43,698 bases of DNA from Candidatus Giovannonibacteria bacterium RIFCSPLOWO2_02_FULL_43_54 (lineage in GTDB: Bacteria > Patescibacteriota > Minisyncoccia > UBA11713 > 2-01-FULL-45-33): the NCBI GenBank assembly GCA_001778875.1, contig MFIK01000010.1, positions 4,936-48,633 of the forward strand, given 5' to 3'. The notes beneath the pieces were generated by a model. It searched no databases and was not told where the DNA came from. It saw only the letters and a list, made by a program, of their open reading frames with translations. Shown here piece after piece: positions 4,015 to 31,955 of the stretch; positions within the stretch are counted from its first letter, which is position 1, and each line of letters opens with the position of its first letter. A program made the translations under genes and the position numbers.

Positions 4015-4608
4015 GCCGTTTTTCTTTATGTACGCGGATATTTTCGGAAGGAGATAGGGGATACCGGAATATCCTTTTTTGATGAAATTGCGGATGATGG
4101 TGCTTGAAATGTTCACCCAGACAATATCTTTGTCCACCAACTTTATATTCGGCGGAAGTTTATCGGGAACTTTTGTTTCCGGTTTTCTTATTGCCAGAAA
4201 ATTCGCATTGTTCCAGAGCTCGTTGCCTTTTATCCAGTCATAGCGGATATTCCACAAAAGTTCGGATCCTATTAGAAAATAGAATTTATTGCCGGGATAT
4301 TTTTTTTCCAGTTCAATTTTTGTATCATAAGTCGTCGTCAGTCCGGGGCGGTCGAGTTCCAGCATTGAAATTTTAACAGGCACCGCCGAGCGTCCAGAGA
4401 ACTCGCGTATAAGTATATTCAGCATTTTGACGCGATGTTTGCCGGGCGTACCGATGTGCTTATCCTTTCTTTCAGAAGACGGCATTATCCAAATTTCATC
4501 GCATTCAAAATTCCGCAAAACGGCCTCGATAGCTATCGCGTGCCCGATGTGAGGTGGATTGAACGACCCTCCGTAGATTACTATTTTCTTGCGTTTTTCA
4601 GTTGACAT
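4003..4608 (-). CDS. nadD: Nicotinate-nucleotide adenylyltransferase
   Basis: Transfers AMP from ATP to nicotinate mononucleotide, giving deamido-NAD, the step between PncB and NadE. The 201-aa form starting at MSTEKRKKIV has the nucleotidyltransferase signature GGSFNPPHIGH (13-23) and the C-terminal ISSTIIR (167-173), both diagnostic for NadD. Longer starts up to 4680 exist but run over the divergent gene's start and add no conserved sequence. There is no Shine-Dalgarno before 4608. The 3' end overlaps the convergent Nudix gene by 12 bp. It belongs to the NAD salvage block but has no NrtR-type palindrome upstream. Confidence 0.9.
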   Translation of the reverse strand: MSTEKRKKIVIYGGSFNPPHIGHAIAIEAVLRNFECDEIWIMPSSERKDKHIGTPGKHRVKMLNILIREFSGRSAVPVKISMLELDRPGLTTTYDTKIELEKKYPGNKFYFLIGSELLWNIRYDWIKGNELWNNANFLAIRKPETKVPDKLPPNIKLVDKDIVWVNISSTIIRNFIKKGYSGIPYLLPKISAYIKKNGLYK

Positions 4609-4660: not shown

Positions 4661-5620
4661 ATGATCATATTCTCTTGCAAAACAATGAAGCAGCTTGCCG
4701 ATAAGATTTACGCTGAATTGTGTGCGTTATCTGCCAGACGATTGAATATTGAGCCACGGCCCAGACTTGGAAAAATAAACTGGGACGAATTTGAAAAAAG
4801 CTGGCCGAATTATTCAATTGAAAATCCTGAAGGTACGGTGCGAGGTAAAGATGTTGTTTTTATCATGCACATGCCTGCTCCGGAAGATGTTTTCAAGCAG
4901 CTAGCTGTTGCGTGCGCGTTTCCGAGATATTTGGCAAAGAGTCTTAAGATAGTTCTGCCTCTGTTTCCAACCGGTACAATGGAACGCATTCAAAAATCGG
5001 GTGGAATTGCCACCGCAAAGACCTTGGCGCGTGAATTATCTCAAGTTCCGCTTACATGCACAGGGCCGGTTGAGCTCATGATGTTTGATCTACATGCTTC
5101 CGTCGAAAGATTTTATTTCTCCGATAATATTTTGCCTGATCCGCAGAGTGCCTTGCCTATCTTAAAAGAGAGAATACGGTCCATGGATGGTGTAGCAATT
5201 ACATTCCCTGACGAGGGTTCTTATAAGCGCTTTGGGCAGGAATTTGAAGAATATCCCATGATACTTTGCTATAAAAAGCGCCGGGGTGCAGACCGAAAGG
5301 TCACGATCGTTGAAGGTGATCCTGCAGGAAAAAATGTCTTGATCGTAGATGATCTCTCGCTGACAGCCGGTACAATGGTTGAGTGCGCCAAAGCCGTTCG
5401 TATATTCGGGCCATTGAGCATATCCGGATACGTGACCCATCCCGTTTTTCACGACGATAGCTGGCAAAAAATTATAAATTGCGGTATCTTTACTAAATTC
5501 TGGGTGACCGATTCGTGCCCATTTACCACTAATACAGTTTTTGATCCATTCAGAATAAACTCGTCGCTATTCGAAGTTCTTTCTCTCGCTCCGACTATCG
5601 CCAAAATTTTAGCCAGCTAG
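4661..5620 (+). CDS. Ribose-phosphate pyrophosphokinase, plant class II-like
   Basis: 319 aa, made of two phosphoribosyltransferase-type domains. It shows RGKDVVFI (61-68), FPTGTMER (102-109), IATAKTLAREL (116-126), FDLHASVERFYF (142-153), TFPDEGSYKRF (181-191), the PRPP loop VLIVDDLSLTAGTM (226-239), YVTHPVF (257-263) and FWVTDSC near 282. PTGT-ER, the DLHA-ERFYF block, FPD-G--KRF, ITDSC-like and FEVLSL are what I remember from the plant class II enzymes rather than from bacterial Prs (DLHA-QIQGFF). The PRPP loop has TAGT where TGGT is usual. It would supply PRPP to PncB, encoded next door. The start has GAAAGGGG about 10 nt upstream. A strong terminator follows. Confidence 0.8.
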   Translation: MIIFSCKTMKQLADKIYAELCALSARRLNIEPRPRLGKINWDEFEKSWPNYSIENPEGTVRGKDVVFIMHMPAPEDVFKQLAVACAFPRYLAKSLKIVLPLFPTGTMERIQKSGGIATAKTLARELSQVPLTCTGPVELMMFDLHASVERFYFSDNILPDPQSALPILKERIRSMDGVAITFPDEGSYKRFGQEFEEYPMILCYKKRRGADRKVTIVEGDPAGKNVLIVDDLSLTAGTMVECAKAVRIFGPLSISGYVTHPVFHDDSWQKIINCGIFTKFWVTDSCPFTTNTVFDPFRINSSLFEVLSLAPTIAKILAS

Positions 5621-27638: not shown

Positions 27639-27656
27639 GTGTATAATAGACAATAT

Positions 27657-28421
27657 ATGTTAGACGAACTCAAAAAGATCGGGTTGTCGGAGAACGAGGC
27701 GGAAGTATATATTGCGCTTCTTGAATTGGGTTCTGCCACGGCGCAGGAGATTGCCGCAAAGTCCGGCATAAAGCGGACAACCATCTATGTGCAAATTGAA
27801 GCCCTCCTGAAAATTGGGCTCGTTTCGTCTTTTGAAAAAGAGATGAGTAAGGGGAAAGTCCCGAAAACGTATTTCAGGGCGGAGGATCCGGAAAATCTTA
27901 AACGCGTTGTCGAAAAAGAAAAATCAACCACACAGGAAAAGGAAGACTCTCTCAAAAAAACTCTCCCTGATCTGGAAAGGCTTTTCCTTTCTTCGGGTGA
28001 GCGTCCGCGCGTAAGATTCTTTGAGGGTGTGGAAGGACTTAATGCTATGCAGGATGAATTTTTGAAAACTAAAGATAATTTGGTAGAGACTATTTCTTCA
28101 TTAGACGACGTTTTAAGAATTTTTCCTCAACATCCGGAAAAAAATACGCCTAGACGCATAAAAAGGCATATTGCCTCCAAACTTATCTATACATCTTCAC
28201 GAGGACCATTTCTTGAAAAAGAAAATAAAGAAATGCTGCGCGAAACACGTTATTTCCCGCCGGATAAATTTCATTTTTCCTGCGATATTGCTATTTACGG
28301 GAATATTGTCGCAATTTCCTCGTTACGAGGAGAACCGTTCGGGATAATTATAGAAAGTGAGCAGATTGCGAATTCCATGCGATCAATGTTTTATCTTGCC
28401 TGGAAAGGTGCGGATAAATAA
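27657..28421 (+). CDS. TrmB-family transcriptional regulator
   Basis: 254 aa from ATG 27657 (a GTG at 27639 is less likely). The N-terminal winged helix (about 1-70) has GLSENEAEVYIALLELGSAT and IAAKSGIKRTTIYVQIEAL, typical of TrmB. A coiled-coil stretch follows (about 95-115) and then an effector-type domain (RVRFFEGVEGL onwards) like the one in TrmB/PLD-like sensor proteins. TATAAT (27642-27647) lies 9 nt before the ATG. It has its own terminator. It could be the protein that reads the palindromes at 28872-28956, but only proximity suggests this. Confidence 0.82.
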   Translation: MLDELKKIGLSENEAEVYIALLELGSATAQEIAAKSGIKRTTIYVQIEALLKIGLVSSFEKEMSKGKVPKTYFRAEDPENLKRVVEKEKSTTQEKEDSLKKTLPDLERLFLSSGERPRVRFFEGVEGLNAMQDEFLKTKDNLVETISSLDDVLRIFPQHPEKNTPRRIKRHIASKLIYTSSRGPFLEKENKEMLRETRYFPPDKFHFSCDIAIYGNIVAISSLRGEPFGIIIESEQIANSMRSMFYLAWKGADK

Positions 28422-28871: not shown

Positions 28872-28889
28872 ATGACATATTTATGTCAT
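28872..28889. promoter_or_regulatory. Palindromic operator candidate upstream of the array promoter
   Basis: ATGACATA-TT-TATGTCAT, 8-bp perfect arms, ending 6 bp before the -35 hexamer. Position fits an activator or repressor site between two divergent promoters. Confidence 0.6.
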
Positions 28890-28895
28890 AGGTAC

Positions 28896-28924
28896 TTGAC
28901 AAGAATTCAAAACGGGAGTATACT
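28896..28924 (+). promoter_or_regulatory. Near-consensus sigma70-type promoter of the cassette-like region
   Basis: TTGACA (28896-28901), 17 bp, TATACT (28919-28924): the best promoter match I see in the window. A 36-bp inverted repeat, TACTGACAAA ... TTTGTCAGTA (28921-28956), with inner GTTAAG/CTTAAC, begins inside the -10, so it acts at DNA level at least in part. Confidence 0.85.
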
Positions 28925-28956
28925 GACAAAAGTTAAGTCTTAACAATTTGTCAGTA

Positions 28957-29160
28957 GCCAAACGGTTGGCGGAACTTTTCTAGGCAGGGCATCGATCTTT
29001 AATAAAAAACAATTTGATCGCCCCTGAACCACTTTAGAGGTTTTAGGCTAATCACAAGGTTATTGATACATGGGTAGGGTCTCCTGAGGAGACCAGAAGT
29101 CAGATTAGACATGGGTGTCTGACTTCCGGTCTCCTCAAAATTTAAAAAAATAGGAGGCCT
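28957..29160 (+). promoter_or_regulatory. Structured leader with competing stems around a ribosome binding site
   Basis: Hairpin GCCAA/TTGGC (28957-28970) comes first. GGTCTCC (29078-29084) can pair with GGAGACC (29088-29094). The latter can instead pair with a second GGTCTCC (29128-29134) in a long hairpin extended by GAAGTCA/TGACTTC and GACA/TGTC. GGTCTCCT at either site is also complementary (one G-T) to AGGAGGCC (29152-29159), the Shine-Dalgarno of the gene starting at 29161. The pairings exclude each other, as in a translational riboswitch or attenuator. Confidence 0.6.
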
Positions 29161-29253
29161 ATGATTCGAGTCGGTAACCGGATCCTCTGGGTCGGCAAGG
29201 ACGGATTGCTCTATAGCACCCGCACCGCCGCCCTTGAGTCCTTCAAGGACTGA
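29161..29253 (+). CDS. Possible 30-aa peptide
   Basis: ATG 29161 preceded by AGGAGG at 8 nt spacing; product begins MIRVGNRILWVGKDG and ends SFKD. Possible leader peptide or small protein; family unknown. It is the first frame behind the 28896 promoter. Confidence 0.45.
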   Translation: MIRVGNRILWVGKDGLLYSTRTAALESFKD

Positions 29254-29396
29254 CAAATGAGGGTCAAGTGGGAGACCTGCCTGCCGGCAGGCAGGAAAAT
29301 CCCGGAGCCGGTAAGTCGGCTTGGCAACAGAACCCCCCGCGAACGGGGAAACTTGATGGAAAGTCAAAGTACCTTCTTCTCCGGTTCAAACCCGGA
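29254..29396 (+). other. Hairpin-rich non-coding stretch before repeat A
   Basis: Contains the perfect palindrome at 29276-29295, hairpin CCCCGCGAACGGGG, TTGATGGAAAGT (29353-29364) and a 5-bp/7-loop hairpin TCCGG-TTCAAAC-CCGGA (29380-29396). TTGATGGAA can pair with the left arm of repeat A, competing with that repeat's own right arm. No convincing gene; a 60-aa frame from 29257 crosses all these structures. Confidence 0.5.
29276..29295. repeat. 20-bp perfect palindrome
   Basis: CCTGCCTGCCGGCAGGCAGG, exactly self-complementary. The in-frame repeat in nrtR (8544-8566) is a decayed version. Confidence 0.85.
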
Positions 29397-29470
29397 CTTC
29401 CATCAAAGTTCTAACATTCCAACATTCTGCAGAATATAAGAATGTTACGGAATGAGGATTTTGATGGGAG
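29397..29470 (+). repeat. Conserved-end inverted repeat A (74 bp)
   Basis: Left arm CTTCCATCAAAG (29397-29408), right arm TTTTGATGGGAG (29459-29470). The middle is self-complementary: CATTCC ... GGAATG and AACATTCT ... AGAATGTT. It is directly preceded by a GC-rich hairpin ending at 29396. Confidence 0.85.
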
Positions 29471-29673
29471 TAAAAATTCCCAAAGTTGAAAAACAATATG
29501 ACAGGCTCCGTGGTGAGACGGCGTCCCGTGCCTGCGAAAGCGGGGCGGTGGGCTTGGAGGGGATCGTAAGCCCCCGTAAGCCAGTCTATGACTATCCCAG
29601 GAGAAAGGTACGCTTAACCCCTCCGAAGGCGGTCTGCAGACTGCCATCTCACTCCGGTTAAAAATTTAACCGG
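29471..29673 (+). other. Unit 1 (203 bp) between repeats A and B, mainly structured
   Basis: Dense inverted repeats: GGGA/TCCC just after repeat A, GGCTT ... AAGCC around GGGG/CCCC near 29550-29582, GGCGGTCTGCAGACTGCC near 29629-29646, and the perfect CCGGTTAAAAATTTAACCGG (29654-29673) abutting repeat B. A 65-69-aa plus-strand frame (from 29452 or 29464, to 29661) covers it, without a good ribosome binding site; I think a structured RNA or DNA element is more likely. Confidence 0.45.
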
Positions 29674-29741
29674 CTTCCATCAAAGTTTATTTTATTTAGC
29701 AATCGGATTGCTAAGTGGCAAAAAGTAAATTTTGATGGGAG
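29674..29741 (+). repeat. Conserved-end inverted repeat B (68 bp)
   Basis: CTTCCATCAAAG (29674-29685) and TTTTGATGGGAG (29730-29741), with TTAGCAATC/GATTGCTAA inside. GGAGCGT (29738-29744) can also pair with ACGCTCC (29761-29767) downstream. Confidence 0.85.
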
Positions 29742-29748
29742 CGTAAAA

Positions 29749-29784
29749 ATGAGAACATTCACGCTCCAAGGAGTAAAAGGATAG
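29749..29784 (+). CDS. Possible 11-aa leader peptide
   Basis: ATG 29749 lies 7 nt after the GGGAG that ends repeat B; product MRTFTLQGVKG. The GGAGCGT/ACGCTCC stem encloses its start. Too short to judge by content. Confidence 0.25.
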   Translation: MRTFTLQGVKG

Positions 29785-29824
29785 TTCTTTTTAAAAAATA
29801 GTTCAGAAAAATTTGGAGGACGAG

Positions 29825-30040
29825 ATGAACCAATGGTTTCGTTATTTTCTTGGAACTCCGCAAAGATTTTTGCGGACGTTCGTGGTAGTTGGTCTGATTG
29901 TCGTGATTTTAAACCCCGGCCTACTTGCGTTGGCAGTAAACCGTTTTCTTGGAGAGATGAACCCGCTTATCGGGCCTCTTCTGCAAATCGGAATTGTTGT
30001 CGCCGGCATTAGAATAATACTCTTCGGCCGGAAAAAATGA
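29825..30040 (+). CDS. Small membrane protein, 71 aa, unknown
   Basis: ATG 29825 has GGAGG at 5 nt spacing, a strong ribosome binding site that decides against the upstream TTG 29813. The product has a basic amphipathic N-terminus (NQWFRYFLGTPQRFLR), a membrane helix about 19-40, a second hydrophobic stretch 48-66 (LIGPLLQIGIVVAGIRIILF) and a basic end GRKK. No family recognised. First real gene of unit 2, followed by a 116-aa gene on the same strand. Confidence 0.65.
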   Translation: MNQWFRYFLGTPQRFLRTFVVVGLIVVILNPGLLALAVNRFLGEMNPLIGPLLQIGIVVAGIRIILFGRKK

Positions 30041-30119
30041 AAAACGGGCCAGTGGTTTAGACAAAGGGAGTAACAATGCATGGCGCCTTTCGCCATATCC
30101 GAAACCAAGAGGAGGTACC

Positions 30120-30470
30120 ATGGAAGTATTTCTTTACCGTTCGGACGATGAAGAAGGCGCAAGCAACGGCGGCGGTTTTACCAGGCTCCTGTGCGTGGAT
30201 CGGAAGGTCCACGTTACACACAGCGGAAGCTGGTACGACCAGACCGGTTGCGAGTACGACGCCTTTGATTCAGAAAACTGGGAAGTAACCGGGCCATGCG
30301 ACGGCAGTTGTACCCCAAAAGGGTTTCTAACTGTCGAAGCAGTGGATCTGGTCAACCGATTCTTAAGTTCCGATGGCAAGGATTTGCACGGGTGGTCGAA
30401 AACCACTAAGCGCTATCCTGATGCCAAGCGGAACGAAGATCGGACACCCAGGAGACTGAATCGCTGGTAG
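30120..30470 (+). CDS. Unknown soluble protein, 116 aa
   Basis: ATG 30120 is preceded by GAGGAGG at 5 nt spacing. The product starts MEVFLYRSDDEEGAS, has four Cys (CVD, GCEYD, PCDGSC) and a basic C-terminus (DAKRNEDRTPRRLNRW). The N-terminal half reads like a small beta-rich domain (FTRLLCVDRKVHVTHSGSWYDQ). No hydrophobic segment. Family not recognised. Second gene of unit 2. Confidence 0.6.
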   Translation: MEVFLYRSDDEEGASNGGGFTRLLCVDRKVHVTHSGSWYDQTGCEYDAFDSENWEVTGPCDGSCTPKGFLTVEAVDLVNRFLSSDGKDLHGWSKTTKRYPDAKRNEDRTPRRLNRW

Positions 30471-30631
30471 TCCTAACCGTTTACACAAACGTAATGTGCC
30501 GTGGGGTTAAGGCAAAGATAACCCACGTTAAAGGGCGTCCGGCTCATATAGAGCCTTAAGCTGCCCTGACCTAAACTCGGTTTAGGTCAAAAGTGCCGAG
30601 GATCTAGCAACGGAAGTCATAGCGCTTCCGG
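30471..30631 (+). other. Hairpin-rich 3' segment of unit 2
   Basis: Four or more stems in 160 bases: GTGGGGTTA/TAACCCAC, GGCTC/GAGCC, TGACCTAAAC/GGTTTAGGTCA and CGGAAG/CTTCCG (30611-30630), the last directly before repeat C. No reading frame of note. Confidence 0.5.
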
Positions 30632-30693
30632 CTTCCATCAAAGCTTCTCTTCTCTAATTCGCGCGAATAGGAGAATAGAGATTTTGATGGGAG
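30632..30693 (+). repeat. Conserved-end inverted repeat C (62 bp)
   Basis: CTTCCATCAAAG (30632-30643) and TTTTGATGGGAG (30682-30693). The middle has CTCTTCTC against GAGAATAGAG and the palindrome ATTCGCGCGAAT. Confidence 0.85.
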
Positions 30694-30695
30694 TA

Positions 30696-30755
30696 ATGGA
30701 TAGCTCTTTGTTTAAAATATATAGTCAAAAACAGAAAAGGAGAAAACTAAAATGA
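30696..30755 (+). CDS. Possible 19-aa leader peptide
   Basis: ATG 30696 lies 2 nt after the GGGAG of repeat C; the product is MDSSLFKIYSQKQKRRKLK. Its TGA overlaps the ATG of the next gene (ATGA, 30752-30755), and its own codons carry that gene's AGGAG, suggesting translational coupling. The spacing from GGGAG is short. Confidence 0.4.
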   Translation: MDSSLFKIYSQKQKRRKLK

Positions 30756-30943
30756 AATGTCCGGATTGCGATGAAGAAATGGATAGAGAAGACGGTGCGA
30801 GCATTAAGGGTGCACCAAACTGCATTTATTCGTGTGAAGAGTGCGGGAGCGAATTCGTGTGGACGAAAGGCGTGAAAGGATTGAGGCGGATTGCTGAGGG
30901 AGTCCCGAACTCCGCGGCAATTTTGAACAGAAACCATTTCTGA
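30752..30943 (+). CDS. Small zinc-ribbon protein, 63 aa
   Basis: MKCPDCDEEM at the N-terminus and CEECGSEFVW around residues 28-37 give two CxxC knuckles of a zinc ribbon; the rest is a short basic helix (KGVKGLRRIAEGVP). AGGAG lies 9 nt before the ATG. Such ribbons bind nucleic acid or protein; the function here is unknown. First gene of unit 3, upstream of the 205-aa gene. Confidence 0.7.
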   Translation: MKCPDCDEEMDREDGASIKGAPNCIYSCEECGSEFVWTKGVKGLRRIAEGVPNSAAILNRNHF

Positions 30944-30962
30944 AGAAAAGGGAGGCAAGCTA

Positions 30963-31580
30963 ATGAGCGAAAAGTGCGGCTGGGAGCTTGAAACTCTCAG
31001 CGAACTTTGCTCGCTCTGGCGAAGCGGTGCACATGGATATTCGCTGGAGTTCCTCGCGGATACCATTTGCACCAACCTTGCGCGGCAACGCAGATTCGGC
31101 GGAGACGAAGTTGGCGTGAAAGTTGCTTTAGAGCTTCTTTCCTCAGATCTAAGTCTTGCCGAATCGGCGCTTGAAGATATTCTTGCAAAAGAATTATTCA
31201 AAGCCGTACTGGGCTTCGTTAAGAAGATCCGGCGAAACGGACTTGAGCGGTATGATGATTGCGATAAGTTGTATGATGTCGCGAGCGAGGGCAACCACCT
31301 TCTATGTGACTACGACTCATTTCATCTGCTACTCAAGACATTGTCGGATGCTTCACTTCCGCAATCGGGGCGCGAGAAGCTCGCAAAAGAAAAAGCGTGG
31401 TTTTCGTTAACCACACGGCTTCTTGAGCGGTACTTCTATGTGTTCTGGTCTGCGTCGCTCATGGCGGACGGTTATTGCCGACACTGGAAAGTTGAAAGCA
31501 ATAATCCGCTCTCGCTCATGAAGCACATCGTGGAACTTCCGGAAGGAACAAGTTATGAAGAGTTTAAACGCTCTCTGTAA
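30963..31580 (+). CDS. Unknown helical protein, 205 aa
   Basis: ATG 30963 is preceded by GGGAGG. The product is mostly alpha-helical with no hydrophobic span: WELETLSELCSLWRS at the N-terminus, an acidic-hydrophobic middle (ALELLSSDLSLAESALEDILAK), FVKKIRRNGLERYDDCDKL, and a C-terminal region with RLLERYFYVFWSASLMADGYCRHW. No motif I can name. It is the largest gene of the cassette-like region and the best handle for a homology search. Confidence 0.65.
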   Translation: MSEKCGWELETLSELCSLWRSGAHGYSLEFLADTICTNLARQRRFGGDEVGVKVALELLSSDLSLAESALEDILAKELFKAVLGFVKKIRRNGLERYDDCDKLYDVASEGNHLLCDYDSFHLLLKTLSDASLPQSGREKLAKEKAWFSLTTRLLERYFYVFWSASLMADGYCRHWKVESNNPLSLMKHIVELPEGTSYEEFKRSL

Positions 31581-31843
31581 TTTTTTCTTTTTGAGGTTTA
31601 GGGAGTACGAAGTGAACCGGAGAAGCAACGCGCAGAATCCCCCGCCTGACTGCGCGGAAAGTTGCCTTGCTCCGTTTGAGACGGAGAGCTCCGACTAGCG
31701 TCGGGAGTTTGCAACACACCAAGCTATAAAAGTTAGAGGCTGAAAGCTATCCCGTTGCAACTGGCGCCCTGCCTAAAAACAGGGCTGGTGATAAATTAAG
31801 GGGAAAAGATTTGCGGAGGATAGGATAAAAAAATCTTATCCCC
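31581..31843 (+). ncRNA. Highly structured non-coding segment (candidate RNA)
   Basis: Stems in order: CGCGCAG (31629-31635)/CTGCGCG (31650-31656). Then GTTGC (31661-31665) closed by GCAAC (31711-31715), enclosing two hairpins CTCCGT/ACGGAG (31670-31686) and CTCCGAC/GTCGGGAG (31689-31707), a clear three-way junction. Then GCCCTG/CAGGGC (31766-31785) and GGATAA/TTATCC (31823-31841) directly before repeat D. No gene-like frame. Either a structured RNA or folded recombination DNA. Confidence 0.5.
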
Positions 31844-31914
31844 CTTCCATCAAAGTTTTTATAAAATTATCTACTATGATATATCATGGTACTTTATGAA
31901 AATTTTGACGGGAG
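31844..31914 (+). repeat. Conserved-end inverted repeat D (71 bp)
   Basis: CTTCCATCAAAG (31844-31855) and TTTTGACGGGAG (31903-31914); one base (T to C) differs from the other right arms. The middle has AAAATT/AATTTT and TACTATGATATATCATGGTA. The last member of the series; 31915-31955 holds nothing I can name. Confidence 0.85.
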
Positions 31915-31955
31915 TACCGGAGGAAATTAAATAAAAATATACTAAAAAAGACTTT

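What the first reader, a model, noticed from the sequence alone, without database searches (positions are those of the whole stretch)
29078..29160. Competing stems that can hide the first ribosome binding site: possible riboswitch or attenuator
Two copies of GGTCTCC flank one GGAGACC, and GGTCTCCT is also complementary to the Shine-Dalgarno AGGAGGCC at 29152-29159. Segment 2 can pair with copy 1 or copy 3, leaving the other copy free to bind the ribosome site. The copy 2-3 hairpin has a further 11 paired positions. The whole lies 150-240 nt behind the strongest promoter in the window. Because both copies can bind the ribosome site, the logic is not a simple on/off from sequence alone.
Basis: partly seen in the sequence, partly recalled or inferred. 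Interest (0 to 1): 0.7.

Follow-up and report, generated by a model that had tools for sequence, protein, structure and literature searches.

The report
Conserved leader RNA beside TrmB regulator
The interlocking stems are real and belong to a conserved, previously unlisted RNA at the head of a strongly promoted string of small genes and folded RNAs in tiny uncultured bacteria, but relatives keep the RNA without the ribosome site, so it is probably not a riboswitch; a neighbouring TrmB-type regulator is the likelier control.

Summary
The three segments exist at the stated coordinates. In the predicted fold they do not compete: segment 1 pairs with the Shine-Dalgarno (SD) while segments 2 and 3 form a long hairpin, and the alternative is about 9-10 kcal/mol worse. 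A covariance model of the hairpin finds the same leader in three other genomes of the family (window, G002, G004, G008; no convincing hit in 373 class genomes outside the family). The hairpin is kept by compensatory changes, with an invariant CAUGGGU in its loop and a second CAUGGGU upstream. The SD and the 30-aa ORF exist only in the window, and each relative leads into something different. That argues against a riboswitch or attenuator for that gene.

What travels with the leader is a TrmB-family gene and a promoter whose -35 overlaps TGTCA-N8-TGACA. Across 383 class genomes, the 16 closest TrmB relatives all occur in genomes with this promoter; 14 lie within 1.6 kb of it. Best reading: a TrmB-linked promoter drives an operon of small ORFs and structured RNAs, partitioned by conserved CUUCCAUCAAAG...UUUUGAUGGGAG hairpins, and the finding is its 5' leader module. 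TrmB binding and the leader's function are inferred, not shown.

The parts
27639..28421 (+). TrmB-family regulator gene (260 aa, PF01978), always next to the leader in the four genomes that have it
   Evidence: Pfam E 6.1e-18; orthologues 62-70% identical in G002, G004, G008, each 79-466 bp from the operator-promoter
28884..28901 (+). inverted repeat TGTCA-N8-TGACA overlapping the -35 box; candidate TrmB operator (inferred)
   Evidence: one in the window, 0.01 expected; same place in G002, G004, G008 and G088 with different N8
28896..28924 (+). strong promoter TTGACA-17-TATACT
   Evidence: 11 of 12 consensus matches; conserved in homologous leaders
28925..29160 (+). structured 5' leader RNA
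   Evidence: fold z -6.1 for 28926-29260; homologues G002, G004, G008
29069..29075 (+). first CATGGGT motif, conserved in all four leaders
29078..29084 (+). segment 1 GGTCTCC, pairs with the SD in the window
29086..29136 (+). conserved hairpin (segments 2 and 3) with invariant GGAGACCA...CATGGGT...CGGYCTCC
   Evidence: covariance model R1; 6 of 17 pairs changed on both sides in three sequences; independent hit in G008, E 3.0e-10
29110..29116 (+). second CATGGGT motif, in the hairpin loop
   Evidence: invariant in four sequences
29152..29159 (+). AGGAGGCC, candidate SD, 3' strand of the lower stem
   Evidence: paired with segment 1 at probability above 0.99 in its core; absent from the other three leaders
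29161..29253 (+). 30-aa ORF MIRVGNRILWVGKDGLLYSTRTAALESFKD, possibly not a gene
   Evidence: no good homologue in 18 related genomes
29397..29470 (+). unit-boundary hairpin 1 (CTTCCATCAAAG...TTTTGATGGGAG)
29674..29741 (+). unit-boundary hairpin 2
30632..30693 (+). unit-boundary hairpin 3
31844..31914 (+). unit-boundary hairpin 4
29784..29790 (+). AGTTCTTT-type motif (boxA-like) after hairpin 2
   Evidence: boxA identity not confirmed
30703..30709 (+). AGCTCTTT-type motif (boxA-like) after hairpin 3
29825..30040 (+). small ORF (71 aa)
   Evidence: no Pfam match
30120..30470 (+). small ORF (116 aa), homologue in the G002 array by reading
   Evidence: no Pfam match
30752..30943 (+). small ORF (63 aa) with CxxC pairs
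   Evidence: only weak zinc-ribbon matches below cut-off
30963..31580 (+). ORF (205 aa) of unknown function
   Evidence: no Pfam match

Best explanation
The stems are the 3' module of a conserved structured 5' leader RNA. It heads a strongly promoted operon of small ORFs and structured RNAs that is controlled at the promoter, most likely by the adjacent TrmB-family protein acting at TGTCA-N8-TGACA over the -35 box. The leader folds into a long hairpin (segments 2-3) that displays a CAUGGGU loop, with a second CAUGGGU upstream. These two identical motifs probably bind one common factor, a protein or the processing or elongation machinery, to protect, process or keep transcribing the long folded transcript. 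In the window the lower stem happens to include AGGAGGCC, so a ribosome site there would be mostly hidden. Shown by computation: the fold, its covariation, the homologues, and the co-occurrence and adjacency of TrmB and the promoter. Inferred: that TrmB binds the repeat, the direction of control, and the leader's role.
For: Hairpin covariation and an independent model hit in G008 at E 3.0e-10. The SD and ORF are not conserved: the 30-aa ORF has no good match in 18 relatives, and what follows the leader differs: a boundary hairpin and a MAWYC-type ORF in G002, tRNA-Tyr in G004, tRNA-Pro and a 43-aa ORF in G008. A TrmB orthologue of at least 62% identity is present in exactly the four leader genomes of ten in the family. 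The operator-promoter occurs in 32 of 383 class genomes against 0 for the reversed control. All 16 closest TrmB relatives are in such genomes, Fisher p 8e-20, or 2e-15 without the window's family. TrmB homologues lie in 15 of 30 operator loci against 0 of 29 control loci. The array is strongly structured: mean z -2.6, against -0.1 and -0.3 in two nearby coding stretches.
Against: No expression or binding data. The four leaders come from one family, so shared ancestry explains part of the conservation; Fisher values ignore phylogeny. Some operator-promoters have no TrmB nearby and some drive TrmB itself, so the link is not one-to-one. TGACA of the repeat is also part of the -35 consensus. No partner for CAUGGGU was identified. 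The fold z-scores of G002 and G004 are modest (-2.0 and -2.3).
Confidence: 0.62

Rival explanations
1. A cis-acting translational switch: segment 1 hides the ribosome site, and a ligand, protein or temperature shifts pairing to 1-2 and frees or re-hides it, regulating the 30-aa ORF.
For: SD core paired with probability above 0.99; alternative 1-2 and 3-SD pairings exist; partial 1-2 pairing is possible in all four leaders.
Against: SD and ORF are absent from the relatives. Both states hide the SD. The alternatives cost 9-10 kcal/mol. No Rfam riboswitch match.
Confidence: 0.1
2. A transcription attenuator or terminator-antiterminator in the leader.
For: Long alternative stems near a strong promoter.
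Against: No stem followed by a U run on the + strand between 28925 and 29400; the structures would allow read-through into the array.
Confidence: 0.05
3. A leader for Nus-type antitermination or RNase III processing, as in rRNA operons, with hairpins plus boxA-like AGTTCTTT at each unit.
For: AGTTCTTT follows most unit hairpins; nine on the array strand of the G088 array. Long folded transcripts and nearby tRNAs.
Against: No consistent boxA before 16S genes in ten class relatives. The window leader itself carries no such motif.
Confidence: 0.15
4. Stable hairpins without function, made by the palindromic repeats common in these genomes.
For: Palindromes are abundant; a 17-nt palindromic stretch lies between segments 1 and 2 in G002.
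Against: Compensatory changes, invariant loop motif, invariant A/C mismatch and fixed position behind the promoter in four genomes.
Confidence: 0.06

Closest known systems
TrmB family of transcription regulators (PF01978)
   Same: The neighbouring protein has the TrmB DNA-binding domain, and known members bind inverted repeats near promoters (PMC4158304).
   Different: Known sites are TACT-N3-AGTA, TATCAC-N5-GTGATA and TACT-N7-8-GAGTA in Archaea; here TGTCA-N8-TGACA over a bacterial -35 box, with structured RNA and small ORFs downstream. No PF11495 effector domain was found at E <= 0.001.
Riboswitches and RNA leaders in Rfam
   Same: A structured 5' leader with nested stems near an SD in the window.
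   Different: No match to any of 4227 families; the gene and SD are not conserved with the RNA.
Integron cassette arrays
   Same: Same-direction units separated by imperfect hairpins; unit content differs between G000 and G002 at the same locus.
   Different: No integrase among the ten neighbouring genes scanned. The conserved ends CTTCCATCAAAG and TTTTGATGGGAG keep G-U pairs on the transcribed strand, which suggests an RNA-level element.
rRNA-type boxA antitermination leaders
   Same: Repeated AGTTCTTT after hairpins resembles boxA (own knowledge).
   Different: Not found consistently before 16S genes of relatives.

Membership tests
Riboswitch / translational switch | conserved RNA coupled to the same downstream gene or function | tested here: not met
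   Downstream content differs in all four leaders; 30-aa ORF unique to the window
Riboswitch / translational switch | match to a known aptamer family | tested here: not met
   No Rfam hit at gathering score, and none but chance-level hits at E <= 5
Riboswitch / translational switch | two alternative states with opposite SD exposure | tested here: not met
   SD is paired in both the 1-SD and the 3-SD states
Riboswitch / translational switch | ligand- or factor-dependent change of expression | not testable with these tools
   needs an experiment
Transcription attenuator | intrinsic terminator in the leader | tested here: not met
   None on the + strand between 28925 and 29400
TrmB regulator (neighbour gene) | TrmB DNA-binding domain PF01978 | tested here: met
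   E 6.1e-18, 64.9 bits against a cut-off of 25.6
TrmB regulator (neighbour gene) | effector-binding domain PF11495 | tested here: not met
   not reported at E <= 0.001
TrmB regulon | conserved inverted repeat at target promoters that co-occurs with the regulator | tested here: met
   16 of 16 closest TrmB genomes carry it
TrmB regulon | protein-DNA binding | not testable with these tools
   needs EMSA or DNase footprint
Integron array | integrase gene near the array | tested here: not met
   ten neighbouring proteins scanned, none a recombinase; rest of the genome not searched
Integron array | attC core motifs RYYYAAC / GTTRRRY | not tested
   no attC model was run
rRNA-type boxA antitermination | boxA shared with the rRNA leader | tested here: inconclusive
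   no consistent match before ten 16S genes; own 16S gene not in the assembly

The most novel reading that the evidence does not exclude
Paceibacteria-type genomes hold a TrmB-controlled class of long transcripts built of exchangeable units (a small ORF plus a large structured RNA, some with hammerhead-like cores), each bounded by a conserved CUUCCAUCAAAG...UUUUGAUGGGAG hairpin. In the window's family these are headed by a dedicated leader RNA whose two CAUGGGU loops recruit a common factor.
Probability: 0.3. Interest if true: 0.78.

Novelty: new variant of a known kind. Interest (0 to 1): 0.55.

Why it matters
Gene control in Patescibacteria is almost unknown. If right, this gives a concrete testable regulon: one regulator, one operator and a defined set of structured transcripts. 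It also gives an RNA motif absent from Rfam. The same search shows that long folded transcripts with small ORFs are driven by this promoter in several families of the class, which makes the question of what these RNAs do directly approachable.

Tried and rejected
Riboswitch: no Rfam match, SD and ORF not conserved. T-box: CAUGGGUGGU in G004 and G008 recalls the T-box sequence, but Rfam gave no match and the window reads GGGUAGGG. Attenuator: no terminator. Complement of CAUGGGU (ACCCAU): no consistent partner downstream in the four loci. boxA through rRNA leaders: ten 16S loci show no consistent GTTCTTT. Viral contigs: no hit for the boundary hairpin, one probably chance hit for the leader pattern. 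Model R1 hit in G326 (E 0.004) lies inside a coding gene, chance. Literature: nothing on TrmB with candidate phyla radiation; nothing relevant on arrays or RNAs of this kind found in the held library.

Full report
What is there. The region folds far better than shuffled sequence (z -5.9 for 29060-29175; z -6.1 for 28926-29260). The predicted ground state is one nested structure: segment 1 (29078-29084) pairs with AGGAGGCC (29152-29159), and inside it segments 2 and 3 form a hairpin with 10 more pairs after a single A/C mismatch. The core of the SD is paired with probability above 0.99 in every stretch folded; forcing 1-2 or 3-SD costs 9.2 and 10.0 kcal/mol. Complementarity of an SD-like site to some upstream 8-mer is by itself common here, 12 of 93 sites on the + strand.

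Homologous leaders. G002, of the same genus, keeps the locus: TrmB gene, the same promoter, then a leader with CATGGGTAGGG, the hairpin and the CATGGGT loop. G004 has it too. A covariance model from these three searched over 383 class genomes finds one further member, G008, which was not used to build it, at E 3.0e-10; beyond the family there is only one weak hit (G326, E 0.004) inside a coding gene. In the three-sequence alignment 6 of 17 pairs change on both sides, against 2.3 in shuffles and 0-1 for slid partners. The loop CATGGGT, the GGAGACCA strand and an A/C mismatch are invariant. Three sequences are few and related, so this is good but not decisive covariation.

What is not conserved. 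None of the other leaders is followed by the SD and the 30-aa ORF; the peptide has no good match in 18 relatives. G002 leads into a boundary hairpin and another ORF, G004 into boundary hairpins and tRNA-Tyr, G008 into tRNA-Pro and a 43-aa ORF. Segment 1 pairs with segment 2 in all four but more weakly than 2-3. In G004 and G008 the corresponding strand instead extends the stem with local sequence (reading).

What travels with it. A TrmB orthologue (62-70% identity to the window's) is present in exactly the four genomes with the leader and missing, or only distantly related, in the other six of the family. The -35 box of all four promoters lies in TGTCA-N8-TGACA, with N8 different in each. The array of G088, in another family, has the same repeat, the same promoter and a TrmB gene upstream. 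The pattern TGTCA-N7-TTGACA-N16/17-TATAMT occurs in 32 of 383 class genomes, with none for the reversed control. The 16 closest TrmB relatives all lie in such genomes, 14 within 1.6 kb of the promoter. Of 30 loci fetched for the promoter, 15 hold a TrmB homologue, against 0 of 29 other loci. In one family the promoter drives TrmB itself. Binding of TrmB to the repeat is an inference.

Downstream. Window 29260-31930 is a series of units separated by four hairpins with constant ends CTTCCATCAAAG and TTTTGAYGGGAG. The same hairpins occur in G001, G002, G088, G352, a Zambryskibacteria genome and an Umea bin. The fixed G-U pairs of the stem are good on the transcribed strand and A-C mismatches on the other, which favours an RNA-level role (reading). 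The array is strongly folded (mean z -2.6) beside coding sequence at -0.1 and -0.3. Other promoters with the same repeat are also often followed by folded RNA (mean z -1.9, median -1.3). In G258 about 900 nt without long ORFs follow. None matches Rfam, except a sub-threshold hammerhead in G002.

Mechanism. The simplest reading is promoter-level control by TrmB of a long folded transcript, with the finding as its 5' leader module. The two CAUGGGU motifs suggest one factor bound twice, but no partner was found. Hiding of the SD in the window would be a local consequence and may reduce translation of a small ORF that may itself not be a gene. A ligand switch, an attenuator or simple palindromic noise fit less well.

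Limits.

Noticed in passing
L023 3337-3391 (G002) and L025 minus strand about 9310-9250 (G088): Hammerhead-like ribozyme inside a structured RNA after homologous MAWYC-type ORFs: Rfam type III 38.4 bits, E 4.5e-6, below the curated cut-off, in G002; the homologous place in G088 reads as a canonical CUGAUGA...GAAA core by eye but was not called by Rfam.
   Followed up: partly
window 29397-31914; L022, L023, L025, L031, L036, L038, L039, L077: Arrays of small ORFs and structured RNAs separated by hairpins with constant ends CTTCCATCAAAG / TTTTGATGGGAG, in several Parcubacteria families; unit content differs between species at the same locus.
   Followed up: partly
L023 about 4037-4170 and 4880-5010: The same stretch of roughly 130 nt of structured RNA occurs twice in the G002 array behind two different ORFs; a diverged copy lies in the window near 30500-30640. 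Suggests exchange or duplication of units.
   Followed up: no
L025 minus strand 10896-5133: AGTTCTTT occurs nine times on the array strand, mostly right after unit hairpins; resembles boxA.
   Followed up: partly
L102 (G002:C9) 1814-2600: Two tandem promoters of the same type, each followed by a folded RNA of about 300 nt and a terminator-like stem; look like small noncoding RNAs.
   Followed up: no
L076 1545-2470 (G258): About 900 nt of folded RNA with no long ORF behind a TrmB-linked promoter, ending near a terminator-like stem.
   Followed up: partly
L100 and L101 (G004:C28, G008:C20): Operator-promoters with structured leaders and small ORFs, followed on the other strand by what reads like a tyrosine recombinase gene, near tRNA-Arg; not tested with a family search.
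   Followed up: no
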